52,022 nt of DNA, taken from contig NZ_JAFUHT010000051.1 of NCBI RefSeq assembly GCF_017468685.1, forward strand, positions 1 through 52,022, given 5' to 3'. Below are positions 39,456 through 46,981 of the stretch, piece by piece (position 1 is the stretch's first letter; every line of letters starts with the position of its first letter). Under the pieces are notes generated by a model. It saw nothing but the letters and a program-made list of their open reading frames with translations. It made no database searches and had not been told where the DNA came from. The position numbers were made by a program, and so were the translations under genes. This DNA is from Methanobrevibacter sp. GTDB taxonomy: Archaea; Methanobacteriota; Methanobacteria; Methanobacteriales; Methanobacteriaceae.

Positions 39456-40169
39456 TCAGTTATTAAGAAACTCTTCAGGTTTTTTCGGAATAACTTCTCC
39501 ATTAAATATAGAAAAAATACCAGTTGAATTATTAATTATTCCATTATCTCGAGTAATAAAATAAATTACATTATCCAATTTATCAGATGTTTTAAAGGCA
39601 TCCAATAGAATTTCTGCATCCGGGCTATGAATTCCTATATCATTAAGAAAACCAATAATTTGAGCATCCCCTAAATTAATAGAATAATGATATAAATCCA
39701 CTTTTTTAAAAAGAAAGTTAAGAGCAGAATAATAATTTTTATAATCTGATTTTAAAGTCAAAAATTCTTCATTTATCCAGATTTCAAAAGAGGAACTAAT
39801 AGAATATTTTAAAATATCATTATAGTAAGAAAATAACCTATTAACAATTTTTAGAAATTTTTTCCTATTAAATCCAAATGGATAATCTTCAAAAGAATAT
39901 TTATTTAAAAATTTTCTTTTAACAATATATAATGAAGAGGCAATTTTTTCATCAGGAATTTTATTAACTAAAATAAATTTCCTAATACAACCAATAACTT
40001 CAAATGAAATTTTTTCAAGCTTAGAGAGTACATTATTCGATTCTTTTTTAACATTCTCACTAGTAACTTTAATTGAGTTGGATTTAAAGTATTTTTCGCA
40101 AATATCTTTTGCACTGTCTTTAGTAGCAATTGATAGAAAAATATTGCTATCTAAGAAATGATAATTCAT
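39456..40169 (-). CDS. Probable PIN-domain ribonuclease (toxin candidate)
   Basis: A 237-aa protein with the acidic pattern of PIN nucleases: D6 in 'MNYHFLDSNIFLSIA', E43, D184/D190 in 'HSPDAEILLDAF' and D208 in 'YFITRDNGI'. PIN enzymes cleave RNA and are common toxins. The ATG at 40169 is chosen because AGGAGG lies at 40175-40180 upstream of it; a longer frame from 40196 would add nine residues overlapping the previous gene. It begins one base after the stop of a Panacea-like gene, which suggests a toxin-antitoxin pair. It is larger than usual PIN toxins (about 130 aa), with a helical insert at about 60-160. Confidence 0.65.
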   Translation of the reverse strand: MNYHFLDSNIFLSIATKDSAKDICEKYFKSNSIKVTSENVKKESNNVLSKLEKISFEVIGCIRKFILVNKIPDEKIASSLYIVKRKFLNKYSFEDYPFGFNRKKFLKIVNRLFSYYNDILKYSISSSFEIWINEEFLTLKSDYKNYYSALNFLFKKVDLYHYSINLGDAQIIGFLNDIGIHSPDAEILLDAFKTSDKLDNVIYFITRDNGIINNSTGIFSIFNGEVIPKKPEEFLNN

Positions 40170-40170
40170 A

Positions 40171-41049
40171 TTAATCCTCCTCAAAATAGATATCAATTAA
40201 TGGACCTAAAAATCCTCTATCTTCGTGAGAACAGTCAGCATATTTTGTAAAATCTATCCACTCATCTGATTTATTAATAAAATCATCAACTATATGATCT
40301 AAATTATAAATTGAAGTTTGAAATTTTTGATTCCATTGAGTATAGTTTTCATCATAAAATGAATCATGTTCCAGACATCTTAAACCTTGGGCAAAACTAA
40401 ACCAAAGATTTTTAATAGGTTTTTTTAGAATATTCCATTTTTCAGATATTAAATTTTCATCATTTAAAAAATCAATTTGGCGAGTGAATTTAGTGAAAAT
40501 TAAACTAAAATCTTGCATATAAATAATTGGAATTAATTTACATTGACAATTCCTAAATGACATAACATATTCATCTCCATCACCAATGAACTTATCATTT
40601 CCAGTTGGATTAAAAATACCATATTTGAATTCGTGAAGCATATCTAAAGGAGCAAAATCCTTATAAATATCTTCAGCCAACGCCGAATAAACATAATTAC
40701 CTTTAGAAATTAAATTTAAAATTGATTCGGTGATTTCTGGAAAATCATTTATGTCATTACCATTAAATCTGTCCAAATATTTATCATTCAAAGAATAATT
40801 TTCACCAACAGCTGTTAAATATTTTTTAGATTCATTAAATGAAAATCTTAAAGTTTCACTGAACGGACCATAGCAATACCAATAATATGGCAAATCATCA
40901 TACAATGGATGGTCTTCACCCAAATCCATTTTTACTTTATATATTACTTTTTGAAGTACTAATTCGTTAATAGGCATACTGTTTTCTTTAAATAAACAAA
41001 TTACATTTTTAGTCAATTCATTATTGGTTTTAATTATATTTGAAATCAT
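40171..41049 (-). CDS. Panacea/DUF4065-like protein (antitoxin candidate)
   Basis: A 292-aa protein. Residues about 27-70, 'NELVLQKVIYKVKMDLG...LPYYWYCYGPFSETL', resemble the SocA/Panacea (DUF4065) domain, 'LQKL.Y...' followed by 'YYW..YGPFS'. Panacea proteins are antitoxins that neutralise diverse toxins in two-gene modules. The remaining 200 residues are mostly helical and unrecognised. It ends one base before a PIN-type gene. GGAGGAAATGGT precedes the ATG at 41049. The family call is from motif memory; a search is needed. Confidence 0.55.
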   Translation of the reverse strand: MISNIIKTNNELTKNVICLFKENSMPINELVLQKVIYKVKMDLGEDHPLYDDLPYYWYCYGPFSETLRFSFNESKKYLTAVGENYSLNDKYLDRFNGNDINDFPEITESILNLISKGNYVYSALAEDIYKDFAPLDMLHEFKYGIFNPTGNDKFIGDGDEYVMSFRNCQCKLIPIIYMQDFSLIFTKFTRQIDFLNDENLISEKWNILKKPIKNLWFSFAQGLRCLEHDSFYDENYTQWNQKFQTSIYNLDHIVDDFINKSDEWIDFTKYADCSHEDRGFLGPLIDIYFEED

Positions 41050-41279: not shown

Positions 41280-41480
41280 TTAATCTAAATTATCGGCAAT
41301 ATTATCAAACATTGCCTCATCAAATTCTAATCCCCTTTTCTCAAATATAGTTCGTAGCATATCCATTCCTGTTGGAATATTAGGGTCATTAATTCTTTCC
41401 CTAATTTTTTCATGCTCTTCAGGTGTGGGTTTTTTTGTACAGTAGTATTCTGCACAATGTATTTTTGATTTAATAGTCAT
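41280..41480 (-). CDS. Small partner protein of tandem cassette, copy 1
   Basis: A 66-aa charged protein (MTIKSKIHCAEYYCTKKPTP...) of unknown family. Its start overlaps the stop of the 216-aa gene by one base (TAATG), so the two are translationally coupled. It is homologous to the 59-aa protein at 42335-42514: both have 'C.KKPT/RKLPT.EE', 'R...DP.I.TG.D.L' and an acidic end 'FDEAMFDN' / 'YDEIFAD'. Cys residues at 9 and 14 might bind metal. Conservation of a tiny partner in both copies argues that it is a real gene. Confidence 0.65.
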   Translation of the reverse strand: MTIKSKIHCAEYYCTKKPTPEEHEKIRERINDPNIPTGMDMLRTIFEKRGLEFDEAMFDNIADNLD

Positions 41481-42130
41481 TAGTCATACCCCATTCTAGT
41501 TAATTGTATACCTTTTATGTTTTTATCATTTATATAATTTGATAATGCAATCCCATACATAATATCACAAATATCATTAGCTTTTTCAGAATCCGAATAT
41601 TTTTCATCACAATCATTTTGACAAGATTTTAAAATTGATCGAGCATATTCTTTTAAAAATAAATGAAATAAAATATTTATTCCTTTTGATTTTAAAATCA
41701 ATAGTTCTTTTACGCTTGCAACTAATTCATAATCCTCAAAATCTCTTATTAAAACACCAAAATTTCTATCAGATGGAGGAGAATATGAATCTTTTGTATG
41801 ATTATGAATAGATACAACATGATGCCCTTCAAACTCACCATCATCAAATGTTATTTTAACATTATTTTTTATTCCTTTTGCACATTTAAGAATTTCTCCA
41901 GTCACATAATCAAAATATACTACAAATTCATAGTCAAGATTTCGAGTTTTTTTAATGAATTCATCAACTGTTTTAAATGCCTCATCACTGAATTCAGACG
42001 GCAGATCCTCCATTCGAATTGAGGAAACATTTTCGGTTTTCAATTTTTGATAATCTTCAAAATCATCGCCAATATCCAACATACAAACTAATAGCACATA
42101 TACACAAATTAAAATATTTCTAAATTTCAT
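41480..42130 (-). CDS. JAB/MPN-like protein of tandem cassette, copy 1
   Basis: A 216-aa protein. Residues 5-20 (NILICVYVLLVCMLDI) form a signal or membrane helix. The core has E79 (TGEIL) and 'VVSIHNHTKDSYSPPSDRNF' with H109-x-H111 and D121, which resembles the HxH...SxxD metal site of JAB/MPN-type peptidases, one residue short of the standard spacing. A deubiquitinase-like or amidase role cannot be inferred. The first 111 codons plus 110 bp upstream are almost identical to the second copy at 42548-43165, while the 3' half differs strongly. The small partner follows with one base overlap. Confidence 0.6.
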   Translation of the reverse strand: MKFRNILICVYVLLVCMLDIGDDFEDYQKLKTENVSSIRMEDLPSEFSDEAFKTVDEFIKKTRNLDYEFVVYFDYVTGEILKCAKGIKNNVKITFDDGEFEGHHVVSIHNHTKDSYSPPSDRNFGVLIRDFEDYELVASVKELLILKSKGINILFHLFLKEYARSILKSCQNDCDEKYSDSEKANDICDIMYGIALSNYINDKNIKGIQLTRMGYD

Positions 42131-42334
42131 GAACAGATATTGGTTTATAAAACTTATAAAGCTTTATTTTAAAAATAAAAAGCAAATGACTTAATAAATG
42201 AATTTTTAAGAGTAATTTTACAAGTTTAAGGCAATATTGCACAACAAAAAATAGATTTGCAATGAATTTAAATTCAACTAACAAATTTAAATGGAACCCG
42301 TTATCTTTAAAAACCCATGAAAAAATAAAATCTT

Positions 42335-42514
42335 TTAGTCAGCAAAGATTTCATCATACTCAACATCAAAACCAAGCATCTTATAGAGAGCATAAAGTCT
42401 ATCCTTGCCAGTTAAAATAGTGGGATCAGCTACTCTTTTTCGAGCAAGTTCAATTTCTTCATGAGTAGGTAGTTTTCTACAACTATATCCAATAGTATTT
42501 ACAGCATTGTCCAT
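42335..42514 (-). CDS. Small partner protein of tandem cassette, copy 2
   Basis: A 59-aa protein, 'MDNAVNTIGYSCRKLPTHEE...YDEIFAD', homologous to the 66-aa protein at 41280. AAAGGAG lies 10 bp upstream of the ATG. It begins 33 bp after the stop of its larger partner because that gene stops early in this copy; in copy 1 the two overlap. In the gap the old frame is still readable ('GIQLTKKEYVT'), showing recent loss of the coupling. Confidence 0.68.
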   Translation of the reverse strand: MDNAVNTIGYSCRKLPTHEEIELARKRVADPTILTGKDRLYALYKMLGFDVEYDEIFAD

Positions 42515-42547
42515 AGTAACATACTCCTTTTTAGTTAATTGTATACC

Positions 42548-43165
42548 CTATATGATTTTATCATTTATATACTTTAATAATTCACTCCCATATATAATAT
42601 CATGCATTTTGTTGATTATTTCATCATCAGAATATCTAGAAACACACAATTCAAGACAGGAGTCTGCAATATCATCAGAACAAATATTCAACAAAAATGA
42701 TAACCCCTTATACACTCCTTTGGCCTCTAATATCCAGAATGAACTAAAACCTGCAACCAATTCATAGTCTTCAAATGGTCTGTCAAAAATTCCAAAATTT
42801 ATGCCCGATGGAGCAGACAAGGAATACTTACTGTGATTATGAATGGACGCCACATGATGCCCTTCAAACTCACCATCTTCAAATGTTATTTTAACACTAT
42901 CTTTTATCCCCTTTGCACATTTAAGAATTTCTCCAGACACATAATCAAAATATACTACAAATTCATAATCAAGATTTTGAGTTTTTTTAATGAATTCATC
43001 AACTGTTTTAAATGCCTCATCACTGAATTCAGACGGCAGATCCTCCATTTGAATTGAGGAAACATTTTCGGTTTTCAATTTTTGATAATCTTCAAAATCA
43101 TCGCCAATACCCAACATACAAACTAACAGTACATAGACACAAATTAAAATATTTCTAAATTTCAT
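42548..43165 (-). CDS. JAB/MPN-like protein of tandem cassette, copy 2
   Basis: A 205-aa paralog of the gene at 41480. The first 111 residues differ in only a few positions, but from residue 112 the sequences part: 'SKYSLSAPSGINFGIFDRPF' here, 'TKDSYSPPSDRNFGVLIRDF' there. H109-x-H111 and E79 are kept, but position 121 is Gly instead of Asp, so the presumed metal site is incomplete. The protein ends at TAG where copy 1 has AAA, losing about ten residues. It might be inactive, or have a binding role only. Confidence 0.6.
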   Translation of the reverse strand: MKFRNILICVYVLLVCMLGIGDDFEDYQKLKTENVSSIQMEDLPSEFSDEAFKTVDEFIKKTQNLDYEFVVYFDYVSGEILKCAKGIKDSVKITFEDGEFEGHHVASIHNHSKYSLSAPSGINFGIFDRPFEDYELVAGFSSFWILEAKGVYKGLSFLLNICSDDIADSCLELCVSRYSDDEIINKMHDIIYGSELLKYINDKII

Positions 43166-43287
43166 GAACAGATATTGGTTTATAAAACTTATAAAGCTTT
43201 ATTTTAAAAATAAAAAGCAAATGAGTTAATAAATGAATTTTTAAGAGCAATTTTACAAGTTTAAGGCAATATTGCATTAAAGAAATA

Positions 43288-43843
43288 ATGAAATCAACTC
43301 CAAATATAATATCCCATCTTGAAAATAAAACGGAAATAGAAAATAACATACCTCTCCACGTCGACACCATCTTCATTAGACAAAAAGATGGCAGGAAAGT
43401 TTAAAATAGTCTTGTGTACAAAACAGGTACACAAGAGGAATTATCTGATAAGGAGGCAATAGACTTGCTTTTGTTGCCAGACATGGATATTGACTTACCC
43501 ATCAAATCATTAATGACCATGATTTGTTTAATACTTTCCAAAAACAATATTTCAGACTTAGATTTTAAAAAGAAAATCATTCTTTGCGAAATTAAAGTTC
43601 TTAACAGATTTTTCAATGATTATGAATTTTCTAGTTGATTGAAATGTTACAAACAAAAAACCCTGAAGTCGAACGCATAATCCAAAAATACGGAGAAGGA
43701 TTCGACACCATATACTTCGACGGAAAAGCCGACGGTATACTCAAAATTGCCCAAAAAGGTTTAATGGAGGAATTGATGAGGACATTATTTCCCATCTAAC
43801 TGGTTTTTCCATCGACAAACTCAAAGAAATCAAAAAAGATTAA
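43288..43843 (+). pseudogene. Broken Rpn-family (PD-(D/E)XK) transposase/nuclease
   Basis: Recognisable pieces of a recombination-promoting nuclease/putative transposase run in order but in different frames: 'STPNIISHLENKTEIENN' (from 43288), 'LSDKEAIDLLLLPDMDIDLP' (43441 on, in the frame opening at 43414), 'CEIKVLNRFFNDYEF' to a stop at 43636-43638, then 'NPEVERIIQKYGEGFDTIYF' with 'DGKADGILKIAQKGL' (to about 43763), and, after one more shift, 'GIDEDIISHLTGFSIDKLKE' ending 43843. The catalytic N-terminal part is missing. At least two frameshifts are visible. It abuts the tandem duplication. Confidence 0.72.
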
Positions 43844-44068: not shown

Positions 44069-46981
44069 TCAGTCATTGACAAAATAGGAATACATCTCTT
44101 CGGAAACTTCACTTTCGATGTGGAATTTGAAGTTGACTATAGGATGGGTCTTGCCGTCGATTTCCCTGTACATCTGTTTATAGCTTAATGGAGTCATCCT
44201 GCCGATGTAGTAAAATTCAATTCCCTCATCATTGTTTTTCTGAATGAACAGTTCAATTTCCAAGTCAGTGTAGTTGATTAGAGGTTCCAGTTCCTTTGAA
44301 GAGGTTTTACGATTGTTTCTACTCATCCAGTTGAAGGAGTCCTTGGTTATGAAGTGGTCTTCGTAGTTGATGGTTTGTGAGATGTCTTCGGACTTGTGGT
44401 AGGTTACAAATATTGGACATGTATTGTATTTAATCTTGTATCCTCCGATGTTTTGACCGTTCATGTAGTATTTCCAGTCAAGAAGTCTCAGCGCATCCTC
44501 ACGTGAGTATTTTTCATACAGCTTGAATCTGGAGTCAGATTTGTATACGCTTTCGTATTTGTGGAATGCATACTGCAGCGCATCGTTTAGATGTTCATAA
44601 AATATTGGATTTGAAAGTGATTTTTTAAACTGGTCGGATATTTCAAACCTGTCATCTGATGATGATTTGAAAAAGAGATTTTCAGGATTTTTTACCAGTT
44701 TTTCAATTGTGTTTGCCTGATATCCGTCGCCTTTTTCCTTGCGGTAAAAGTCCAGGCTCAGATAGTTGATTGCACCTTTAATTGAATCGGTTTGGTTAGT
44801 GAGATTGAAATTGTCATTAAGGTATTTCTCAATTTGAGGGACTGTAAAGTATTTGTTGATTTTCAAGCATTCCAGAATAACCAGCTCATGTGGCCTGATT
44901 CCTTTTAGAAGTTTTTTAGTGATGAATTTAAGAGGGTCGATTTCATCGTCTGGAATCTCTGAAGTGTAGTCATCCTCAATGTCTGACAGGAAATCATGGT
45001 ATGTCGGATAATCCTTGTGCGCAAGGATCAGTTCAGGATTGAATTCTCCGTTAATTGCGAAGTCATAAAGTGAAGGGATCCTTCCCAACTTGTATTTTAA
45101 TTGAGTGTACTTTTCTTTAAACAAGGCCTTTCTGTTGAATGAAGTGTTGTTGATTGAATCATATATACGCTTTTGTGAAATCTCATCAAAGTTGATTGAA
45201 GAGGCACCGGGAATAATCTTGTTTCCCTCCATCAGATATTTCCTAATACGATCCTTGTCATAAGTCCTGTCACCTGAAAGGGCAATCGGAATCATGAAAT
45301 TGTTTTTGTAGTTTCCGATAAAGTCAAGAATAACCACATACTCCTTGTTTTTGTATTTCCTAAGGCCCCTTCCAAGCTGCTGGATGAAAATGATTGGAGA
45401 CTCGGTAGGCCTGACCAAAAGAACCTGATTGATTTCAGGAATGTCAACACCCTCATTGAAAATGTCAACAGTGAAAATAAACTCAATTTTATCCGGATTT
45501 GCATCATTGGTCAGCCTGTCAATGGCATCACGTCTTTTTTCCTGTGCGTCATCACCTGAGAGAAACACTGACTTATATCCCCTCTGGTTGAATTTGTCTG
45601 ACAATAATTCCGCTTCCCTTTTTCTTGAACAGAATACCAATGCCTTTCTTCTCTCGCCTGAATATGAATAGAATTCCGATTTTTCAATAAGATAATCAAC
45701 ACGCTCATCAGATGCCAGGAGATTGAAATCAGTAAAATTATCATCGATTTCACCGGTATCGAATTCAACATCACTGATACCGAAATAATGGAACGGACAT
45801 AACAAATCCTCTTCCAAAGCTTCCTGCAAACGGATTTCATGGGCAATGTTGTTGTCAAACAAATCATAAATGTTAAAACCATCTGTACGCTCAGGTGAAG
45901 CGGTCATGCCCAGCAGAAATTTTGGTTTAAAGTAATCCAATACTTTCAGGTATGACAGAGCCCCCGCCTTGTGCACCTCATCCACTACAATATAATCAAA
46001 GTGGTCTTTTGAAAACTTGGTGTAAACATCCTCCTTAGACATGGTCTGGATGGTTGAAAACAAATATGGACTGTCATAATCCTTGTTGTTACCAGTTAAC
46101 AGACCGAATTTTTCATGGTCAGTGAATACGTTTTTGTAAGCTTCAATTGACTGTTTGGCAATCTGTTCCCTGTGAACCAGAAAGAGAAATCTTTCAGGCC
46201 CAAAATCATCAACTGCAAAAGCAGATGCATAGGTCTTACCGGTACCTGTGGCCGATACAAGGATGGCACGGGACTCTCCATGACTTATTAGATTTCTGAT
46301 ATTTTCAAGAAACTGCTCCTGCATATAGTTTGGAGTTAAAGTGACATGCTCATCTTTAATCTTTTGGGTAAGCTTTCTTAAATTGGTGAACTTTTTGTTG
46401 GCATCATAGATTTTTTCATACTCGGGAAGTGCATCTTCAAGACTTGCCGCATTTTGCCATAACTCATTGAATTCGGAGCGAAGTTCCAAAAGAATCTCAC
46501 CTTCCAACATCGAGGTGAACTCAACATTCCATTCCTTGTTGACAGTAAGTGCATTCATGGTCATGTTGGAACTTCCGACAATTCCAGTAAAAACATCCCC
46601 TTTTTTGAATATATAACCCTTTGTGTGAAACCCCTCATTTTTTTGCAAATAGAGTTTGATTTCAATATTTTTAAAATCATTAAGTTTTCTTAACGCCTTA
46701 GGTTCTGTAAAAGTCAGATAGTCAGTGGTGAGGATTTTACCCTTAATATTTCTCTTTTCTAGATTGCGAAATTCTTCCAGTAAAGGAGTGATTCCGCCCA
46801 TGGTGATGAAAGCAGCAGAGATTATGAACTCATCACAGTTTCTGAGTTCATCCCTGATTGAATTTATGACCTTGGAGCGATTATTGTTGTATAATAATTT
46901 TGGACGAAAATCAGAGCTGGAGCTGGAATGCTGATTTATAAAAGCGGTTTTCGCACCATTCAGGATTTCATCCATGTTCAT
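44069..46981 (-). CDS. PLD-nuclease / SF2 helicase / DUF3427 protein
   Basis: A 970-aa protein with three parts. Residues about 30-180: phospholipase-D-type nuclease with H119-x-K121 and 'GSSNMT' (136-141). Residues about 210-580: superfamily 2 helicase with Walker A 'SATGTGKT' (243-250), 'DEVHKAG' (334-340), 'GMTASPERTD' (358-367) and 'QLGRGLRKY' near 540. From about 600 to the end: DUF3427, often found with this helicase type. The set suggests an ATP-driven DNA translocase with its own nuclease, of the sort found in defence islands. It is the last gene of the operon. No strong ribosome site, and the Met at residue 3 is an alternative start. Confidence 0.88.
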   Translation of the reverse strand: MNMDEILNGAKTAFINQHSSSSSDFRPKLLYNNNRSKVINSIRDELRNCDEFIISAAFITMGGITPLLEEFRNLEKRNIKGKILTTDYLTFTEPKALRKLNDFKNIEIKLYLQKNEGFHTKGYIFKKGDVFTGIVGSSNMTMNALTVNKEWNVEFTSMLEGEILLELRSEFNELWQNAASLEDALPEYEKIYDANKKFTNLRKLTQKIKDEHVTLTPNYMQEQFLENIRNLISHGESRAILVSATGTGKTYASAFAVDDFGPERFLFLVHREQIAKQSIEAYKNVFTDHEKFGLLTGNNKDYDSPYLFSTIQTMSKEDVYTKFSKDHFDYIVVDEVHKAGALSYLKVLDYFKPKFLLGMTASPERTDGFNIYDLFDNNIAHEIRLQEALEEDLLCPFHYFGISDVEFDTGEIDDNFTDFNLLASDERVDYLIEKSEFYSYSGERRKALVFCSRKREAELLSDKFNQRGYKSVFLSGDDAQEKRRDAIDRLTNDANPDKIEFIFTVDIFNEGVDIPEINQVLLVRPTESPIIFIQQLGRGLRKYKNKEYVVILDFIGNYKNNFMIPIALSGDRTYDKDRIRKYLMEGNKIIPGASSINFDEISQKRIYDSINNTSFNRKALFKEKYTQLKYKLGRIPSLYDFAINGEFNPELILAHKDYPTYHDFLSDIEDDYTSEIPDDEIDPLKFITKKLLKGIRPHELVILECLKINKYFTVPQIEKYLNDNFNLTNQTDSIKGAINYLSLDFYRKEKGDGYQANTIEKLVKNPENLFFKSSSDDRFEISDQFKKSLSNPIFYEHLNDALQYAFHKYESVYKSDSRFKLYEKYSREDALRLLDWKYYMNGQNIGGYKIKYNTCPIFVTYHKSEDISQTINYEDHFITKDSFNWMSRNNRKTSSKELEPLINYTDLEIELFIQKNNDEGIEFYYIGRMTPLSYKQMYREIDGKTHPIVNFKFHIESEVSEEMYSYFVND

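What the first reader, a model, noticed from the sequence alone, without database searches (positions are those of the whole stretch)
41280..43275. Tandem two-gene cassette with constant 5' half and divergent 3' half
Seen: the larger gene and 110 bp upstream are almost identical between copies at a 1035-bp offset for about 444 bp, then diverge abruptly at codon 112; each copy is followed by a homologous small partner. This constant-variable pattern resembles polymorphic toxin or effector genes, or gene conversion limited to one half. The larger protein has a JAB/MPN-like HxH motif and a membrane helix. I know of no named system with this pair.
Basis: partly seen in the sequence, partly recalled or inferred. 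Interest (0 to 1): 0.66.

Follow-up and report, generated by a model that had tools for sequence, protein, structure and literature searches.

The report
Virus-derived toxin–immunity-like gene pairs in methanogens
Two neighbouring gene pairs in a gut methanogen belong to a genus-wide family that looks like an effector with its protecting partner, related to the variable tip of a viral head protein, in which the front half of the effector is repeatedly copied between neighbours while the back half and its partner gene stay distinct.

Summary
Two tandem cassettes share about 110 bp upstream plus codons 1-111 (93% protein identity). They then diverge to 45%, though the 3' halves are still homologous. 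Each is followed by a homologous small gene.

The pair is a family found in 36 genomes of the window's genus. Every intact large gene has the small partner next to it or fused to it. Small genes without a large gene occur; the reverse was not seen.

A second species carries the same tandem pattern. AU tests reject a common tree for the two halves. The small gene's divergence tracks the C-terminal half (r=0.61), not the N-terminal half (r=0.09), with the switch at residue ~111.

The same domain is the C-terminal tip of a MuF-type head protein in a methanogen provirus. A sister provirus carries a different tip with its own small gene.

Best reading: a standalone, virus-payload-related effector–immunity family whose specificity module is C-half plus partner. 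The JAB resemblance is partial: the zinc-ligand Asp is Asn in all members of this genus. Toxicity, partner binding and target are untested. A new variant of polymorphic toxin–immunity systems.

The parts
42548..43165 (-). Large gene P2 (205 aa): N-terminal hydrophobic helix, effector-like domain with E68, H109-N-H111, S120xxN123, two C-terminal helices
42335..42514 (-). Small partner of P2 (59 aa); in relatives it is fused in frame to the large gene
41480..42130 (-). Large gene P1 (216 aa), same architecture; W144 of the family is L here
41280..41480 (-). Small partner of P1 (66 aa), start codon overlaps the stop of P1 (TAATG)
42833..43275 (-). Constant tract, copy 1: ~110 bp upstream plus codons 1-111 of P2
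41798..42240 (-). Constant tract, copy 2: ~110 bp upstream plus codons 1-111 of P1
42548..42832 (-). Variable 3' half of P2; its lineage groups with the fused-type genes of other genomes
41480..41797 (-). Variable 3' half of P1; its lineage groups with G050_sep and G053
42524..42527 (-). Shine-Dalgarno GGAG of the P2 small gene, inside the sequence that in fused relatives encodes ..KKEY..
42548..42550 (-). TAG stop of P2; the frame continues open into the small gene (GIQLTKKEYVT-MDNAV), matching the fused genes of relatives

Best explanation
Each cassette is an effector-immunity (toxin-antidote) pair. The large protein is a membrane-helix-bearing effector whose domain is homologous to the C-terminal payload of a MuF-type viral head protein. 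The small protein is its cognate neutraliser, made by translational coupling at the Shine-Dalgarno/ATG at the end of the large gene. Specificity lies in the C-terminal half plus the partner, which diverge as one module. The promoter and N-terminal half are interchangeable and are homogenised between neighbouring copies by recombination (gene conversion). Shown here: the anatomy, pairing, fusion with retained internal start, orphan partners, conflicting histories of the two halves, partner co-divergence with the C half, and homology to a provirus MuF tip. Inferred: that the large protein is harmful, that the small one binds and neutralises it, the target, and delivery or localisation.
For: Pairing: all 56 large genes of >=195 aa open frame have the partner: 48 separate (mostly within -23..+3 nt, usually with a Shine-Dalgarno), 7 fused in frame, 1 running off its fetched stretch just inside the small gene. 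Fused genes keep AAGGAGTATG..ATG at the internal start in most cases. Orphan small genes without a large gene in the fetched stretch: G048, G095, G081, G088, G054, G047 (contig edge); in G067 and G056 only the last ~35 residues of the large gene remain. Extra or tandem small genes follow fused or large genes in L080, L056, L085. Window N 93%/C 45%, G050 N 86%/C 51%; dS 0.18 vs 0.68 and 0.14 vs 1.30; AU tests reject each half's tree on the other half. Small-gene distances vs C half r=0.61, p=0.0005; vs N half r=0.09, p=0.2; jump at residue 111. Homology to the provirus MuF tips: hhalign 98.9%, E 1.4e-17; L071 is a 573-aa head-morphogenesis protein next to terminase and portal. On the same G115 contig a second MuF, 72% identical over its first ~293 aa, carries a different ~300-aa tip and its own 105-aa small gene; related proviruses carry ADP-ribosyltransferase tips.
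Against: No toxicity or binding data. The canonical JAMM Asp is Asn in all members of this genus examined and the second His is lost in three (L039 Q, L063 R, L065 Y), so the domain may not be an active metalloenzyme. The window copies have no carrier or secretion domain beyond a hydrophobic helix, and some clades lack even that. Partner-C-half co-divergence could reflect physical linkage alone, because the C half adjoins the small gene. Linkage breakdown between halves is seen only in the P-type clade; in other clades both halves track the partner.
Confidence: 0.58

Rival explanations
1. An intracellular toxin-antitoxin or antiviral abortive-infection module: the large protein is kept inactive by the small one (in cis when fused) and released when a virus is sensed. 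The viral origin of the domain would make it a sensor or decoy for virus components.
For: Fusions of the two proteins, small cytosolic-looking partner, translational coupling, location near a type IV restriction gene and a PIN-like gene pair, presence/absence at a fixed site between exbD and rpl15e, many pseudogenes.
Against: N-terminal hydrophobic helix in two clades. Orphan partners and a recombinable N half are more typical of effector-immunity systems. No PADLOC match for the pair.
Confidence: 0.22
2. A domesticated, catalytically dead JAB-like scaffold with a subunit, not a toxin. It serves a membrane-associated cellular function, and the pattern is plain gene conversion between tandem duplicates.
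For: D to N in the zinc site and loss of the second His in three members; dN/dS below 1 in both halves; long-lived locus at exbD/rpl15e in about 12 genomes.
Against: Patchy distribution (36 of the genus genomes searched), frequent decay of the large gene with the small one retained, module exchange beyond the tandem pairs, kinship with a variable MuF tip.
Confidence: 0.15
3. Only a recent tandem duplication of an ordinary gene whose 3' half diverges under relaxed or positive selection, with no recombination.
For: The copies are adjacent and in the same orientation.
Against: The C halves belong to two separate old lineages each with relatives in other genomes; forcing the window copies together in the C-half tree is rejected (p-AU 0.0016), and for G050 p-AU 2e-6.
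Confidence: 0.04

Closest known systems
MuF polymorphic toxins of temperate phages (PMC5576092)
   Same: Homologous effector-like domain at the C-terminus of a MuF/head-morphogenesis protein in a methanogen provirus, followed by a small gene; a sister MuF has a different tip and small gene
   Different: The window genes have no MuF domain, sit on the chromosome as standalone cassettes, and carry an N-terminal hydrophobic helix instead
[quoted passage not shown]
   Same: alpha+beta domain with E, HxH, S motif; a viral-structure search also found iridovirus, NCLDV and phage proteins, groups in which that paper reports Tox-JAB-2
   Different: No Pfam match to DUF4329, RadC or Prok-JAB in the window genus; Asp of SxxD is Asn
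RadC-like JAB domain
   Same: E..h..D and HNHP..PSxx(D/N) motif order; a related family member (L146) hits RadC and Prok-JAB weakly, E 0.02 and 0.06
   Different: Profile comparison of the window family with E. coli RadC proteins gives 7% probability; the wider MuF-tip set gives 65% over 30 columns
CDI/Rhs-type constant-N, variable-C toxins with orphan immunity genes (from general knowledge and PMC3482391)
   Same: Partner gene co-diverges with the C-terminal part; partner-only loci exist
   Different: The exchange point lies inside the domain, at the HNH motif, not between a carrier and a toxin domain; no known carrier

Membership tests
Polymorphic toxin-immunity system | Constant N-terminal part joined to varying C-terminal parts | tested here: met
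   (P-type clade only; C parts are divergent homologues)
Polymorphic toxin-immunity system | Small cognate gene directly downstream, co-varying with the C-terminal part | tested here: met
Polymorphic toxin-immunity system | Orphan immunity genes | tested here: met
Polymorphic toxin-immunity system | Recognisable trafficking or carrier domain at the N-terminus | tested here: not met
   No Pfam or PHROG domain in the window proteins; only a hydrophobic helix
Polymorphic toxin-immunity system | Toxicity neutralised by the partner | not testable with these tools
   needs expression assays
MuF polymorphic toxin | MuF/head-morphogenesis domain in the same protein | tested here: not met
   absent from the window genes; present in the homologue L071
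JAMM/JAB metalloprotease | E ... HxH-x(n)-SxxD zinc site | tested here: not met
   E68, H109, S120 invariant but D is N in all Methanobrevibacter members; D kept in L071, L072 and L143
JAMM/JAB metalloprotease | MPN fold by structure comparison | tested here: inconclusive
   Model pLDDT 92.5; PDB search no significant hit; viral library: minor capsid proteins E 1.1e-7 to 3e-4, phage metalloprotease and MPN-named proteins at E ~0.01-0.02
Tox-JAB-2 / DUF4329 | Match to the Pfam model | tested here: not met
Type II toxin-antitoxin | Antitoxin binds toxin and autoregulates a joint promoter | not tested
   promoter tract is conserved between copies but regulation was not examined

The most novel reading that the evidence does not exclude
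Gut methanogens use a virus-related payload domain as a self/non-self discrimination system: exported or membrane-displayed effectors act on neighbouring archaea, and arrays of chromosomal partners, kept even after the effector is lost, define compatibility groups. Recombination at the active-site motif would keep delivery and expression constant while specificity diversifies.
Probability: 0.15. Interest if true: 0.85.

Novelty: new variant of a known kind. Interest (0 to 1): 0.62.

Why it matters
Polymorphic toxin systems are described as rare in archaea (PMC3482391), and I found no report of one in Methanobrevibacter in the searchable literature. Here is a family present in dozens of species of a dominant rumen methanogen genus, related to a viral head-protein payload and with a built-in test of where specificity resides. 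If the pair is a toxin and its antidote, it opens antagonism and virus-host conflict in methanogens to direct experiment. It would also give a case where recombination splits an effector within its putative catalytic domain and not at a domain boundary.

Tried and rejected
Pfam, PHROGs, PADLOC and NCBIfam found no family for either protein; single weak hits below the curated cut-offs (for example PF09276 at E 0.017, DUF3290 at 0.039) hit one member each and were taken as chance. PDB sequence and fold searches gave nothing. Viral-contig scans with five queries found no relatives, and tblastn against phages and plasmids found none, so a virus carrying the window form itself was not found. Membership in RadC was tested with E. 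coli RadC proteins and not supported for the window family. Free mobility was considered: the second clade (C4-type) sits at one fixed site between exbD and rpl15e in about 12 genomes and is missing there in at least five genomes with both flanks, so it behaves as a presence/absence locus and not as a moving element. Not tried: complex prediction of separate chains (no such tool); the fused relative was predicted instead (pLDDT 93, pTM 0.75), which does not establish an interface.

Full report
Observation. The two cassettes lie on the minus strand of the window. P2 (42548-43165) is followed by a 59-aa gene (42335-42514), and P1 (41480-42130) by a 66-aa gene (41280-41480). At a 1035-bp offset, roughly 110 bp upstream and the first 111 codons are nearly identical (94.6% nt in the coding part, 93% protein). 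The 3' half is 63.5% nt and 45% protein identical. Identity falls from about codon 85, steeply at 106-113, and recovers over the last 15 codons. The 3' halves are therefore divergent homologues, and the small genes are homologous at 34%.

Family. A search of 139 genomes of the taxonomic family found relatives in 38, 36 of them in the window's own genus. Named records are Methanobrevibacter MAGs, mostly from ruminant gut. The window genome carries three further loci: C4, C31 and a frameshifted one in C6. Alignment of 52 large proteins gives invariant F58, K61, E68, H109, P119, S120, F124 and E135, and near-invariant N110, H111, S117, N123 and W144.

Partner. All 56 large genes with an open frame of at least 195 aa have the partner: 48 as a separate gene, 7 fused in frame, and one where the fetched stretch ends inside the small gene. 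In most fused genes the internal ATG of the small part still has AAGGAG or GGAG at the right distance. The peptide KKEY at the end of the large protein is simply that ribosome-binding site read in frame. P2 of the window looks like a fused gene with a TAG between the parts: the frame continues open into its small gene. Small genes also occur without a large gene (G048, G095, G081, G088, G054; G047 at a contig edge) or with only the last ~35 residues of one (G067, G056). No intact large gene without a partner was seen. Extra small genes follow L080 and L056, and L085 has a tandem one. Large-gene pseudogenes are frequent.

Two histories in one gene. G050 has an independent tandem pair in which about 125 bp upstream plus the N half are conserved (86% protein) and the C half is 51%. 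dS is 0.18 and 0.14 in the N halves against 0.68 and 1.30 in the C halves, so the N halves were homogenised recently, not merely constrained. In the N-half tree the window copies pair with each other and so do the G050 copies. In the C-half tree P1 groups with G050_sep and G053, and P2 falls among the fused-type genes. AU tests reject each tree on the other half's data, reject joining the window copies in the C tree (p 0.0016), and reject joining the G050 copies in the C tree (p 2e-6). Across 20 P-type cassettes, small-gene distances correlate with the C half (r 0.61, Mantel p 0.0005) and not with the N half (r 0.09, p 0.2). The sliding correlation jumps from -0.09 (residues 81-110) to 0.52 (111-140) and stays high to the end. 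Dropping one member of each tandem pair does not change this. In two other clades both halves track the partner, so free exchange of halves is a feature of the P-type clade. Physical linkage of the C half with the small gene could contribute and cannot be separated from functional matching by these data.

Viral kinship. In another genus of the family (genome G115) the same domain is the C-terminal part of a 573-aa protein next to terminase and portal genes. Its N-terminal part matches head-morphogenesis/MuF families, and it is followed by a 110-aa gene. On the same contig a second such protein, 72% identical over its first ~293 residues, has a different ~300-aa C-terminal part and another 105-aa follower. 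Related proviruses have ADP-ribosyltransferase tips (Pfam E 1e-7 and 9e-11). G124 and G105 carry further tip-like domains beside MuF remnants and small genes. Profile comparison of the window family with this set gives 98.9% probability, E 1.4e-17. The direction of transfer (virus to chromosome) is inferred, not shown.

Fold and motif. The P1 model is confident (pLDDT 92.5, pTM 0.85): N-terminal helix, a small alpha/beta domain, two long helices and a final strand. The PDB search found nothing significant. The viral library gave uncharacterised and minor capsid proteins of phages (best hit E 2.6e-9, best minor capsid hit E 1.1e-7), iridovirus and other NCLDV proteins, and weaker hits to phage metalloprotease and MPN-named proteins. 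The motif order E..HxH..S..N resembles JAB/JAMM. However, the zinc-ligand Asp is Asn throughout this genus, while L071, L072 and L143 keep Asp, and three members lack the second His. An active canonical JAMM protease is therefore not supported.

Location. The C4-type cassette occupies one site between exbD and rpl15e in about a dozen genomes; other genomes have exbB-exbD beside rpl15e without it. The N-terminal helix is strongly hydrophobic in the P- and C4-types but not in most others.

Interpretation. Small-partner retention, orphan partners, pairing without exception, a specificity block made of C half plus partner, and kinship with a variable MuF tip together favour an effector-immunity pair. 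The small partner would be the neutraliser, and recombination would keep the promoter and N half alike. An intracellular toxin-antitoxin or antiviral role and an inactive scaffold remain possible. Polymorphic toxins, including MuF ones (PMC5576092) and JAB-type ones (PMC3482391), are known. A standalone archaeal family of this layout was not found in the literature searched.

Noticed in passing
window 39456-41049 (-): A two-gene pair: a 292-aa protein followed by a ~237-246-aa protein whose start (HFLDSNIFL) looks PIN-like; no library match above cut-off. Possibly another toxin-antitoxin pair.
   Followed up: no
window 44069-46981 (-): Type IV restriction/helicase protein with PLD-like, helicase and DUF3427 domains (PADLOC mREase_IV E 1.5e-221), so the cassettes lie beside a defence gene.
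   Followed up: no
window 43414-43800 (+): Short open frames that look like remnants of a longer broken gene between the cassettes and the restriction gene.
   Followed up: no
L143 2981-5240: In genome G124 three successive small genes with different N-termini end in or near the same peptide, EWRE(Q/K)KYGKQ, next to a MuF remnant and a tip-like domain; the small gene of L072 ends the same way. A shared C-terminal tag on otherwise different candidate immunity proteins.
   Followed up: partly
L071 and L167 (G115 contig C113): Two proviruses on one contig with MuF head proteins ~72% identical over the first ~293 aa and unrelated C-terminal tips, each with its own small follower gene.
   Followed up: partly
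L085 2778-3164: Small gene duplicated in tandem and fused into one 128-aa frame.
   Followed up: no
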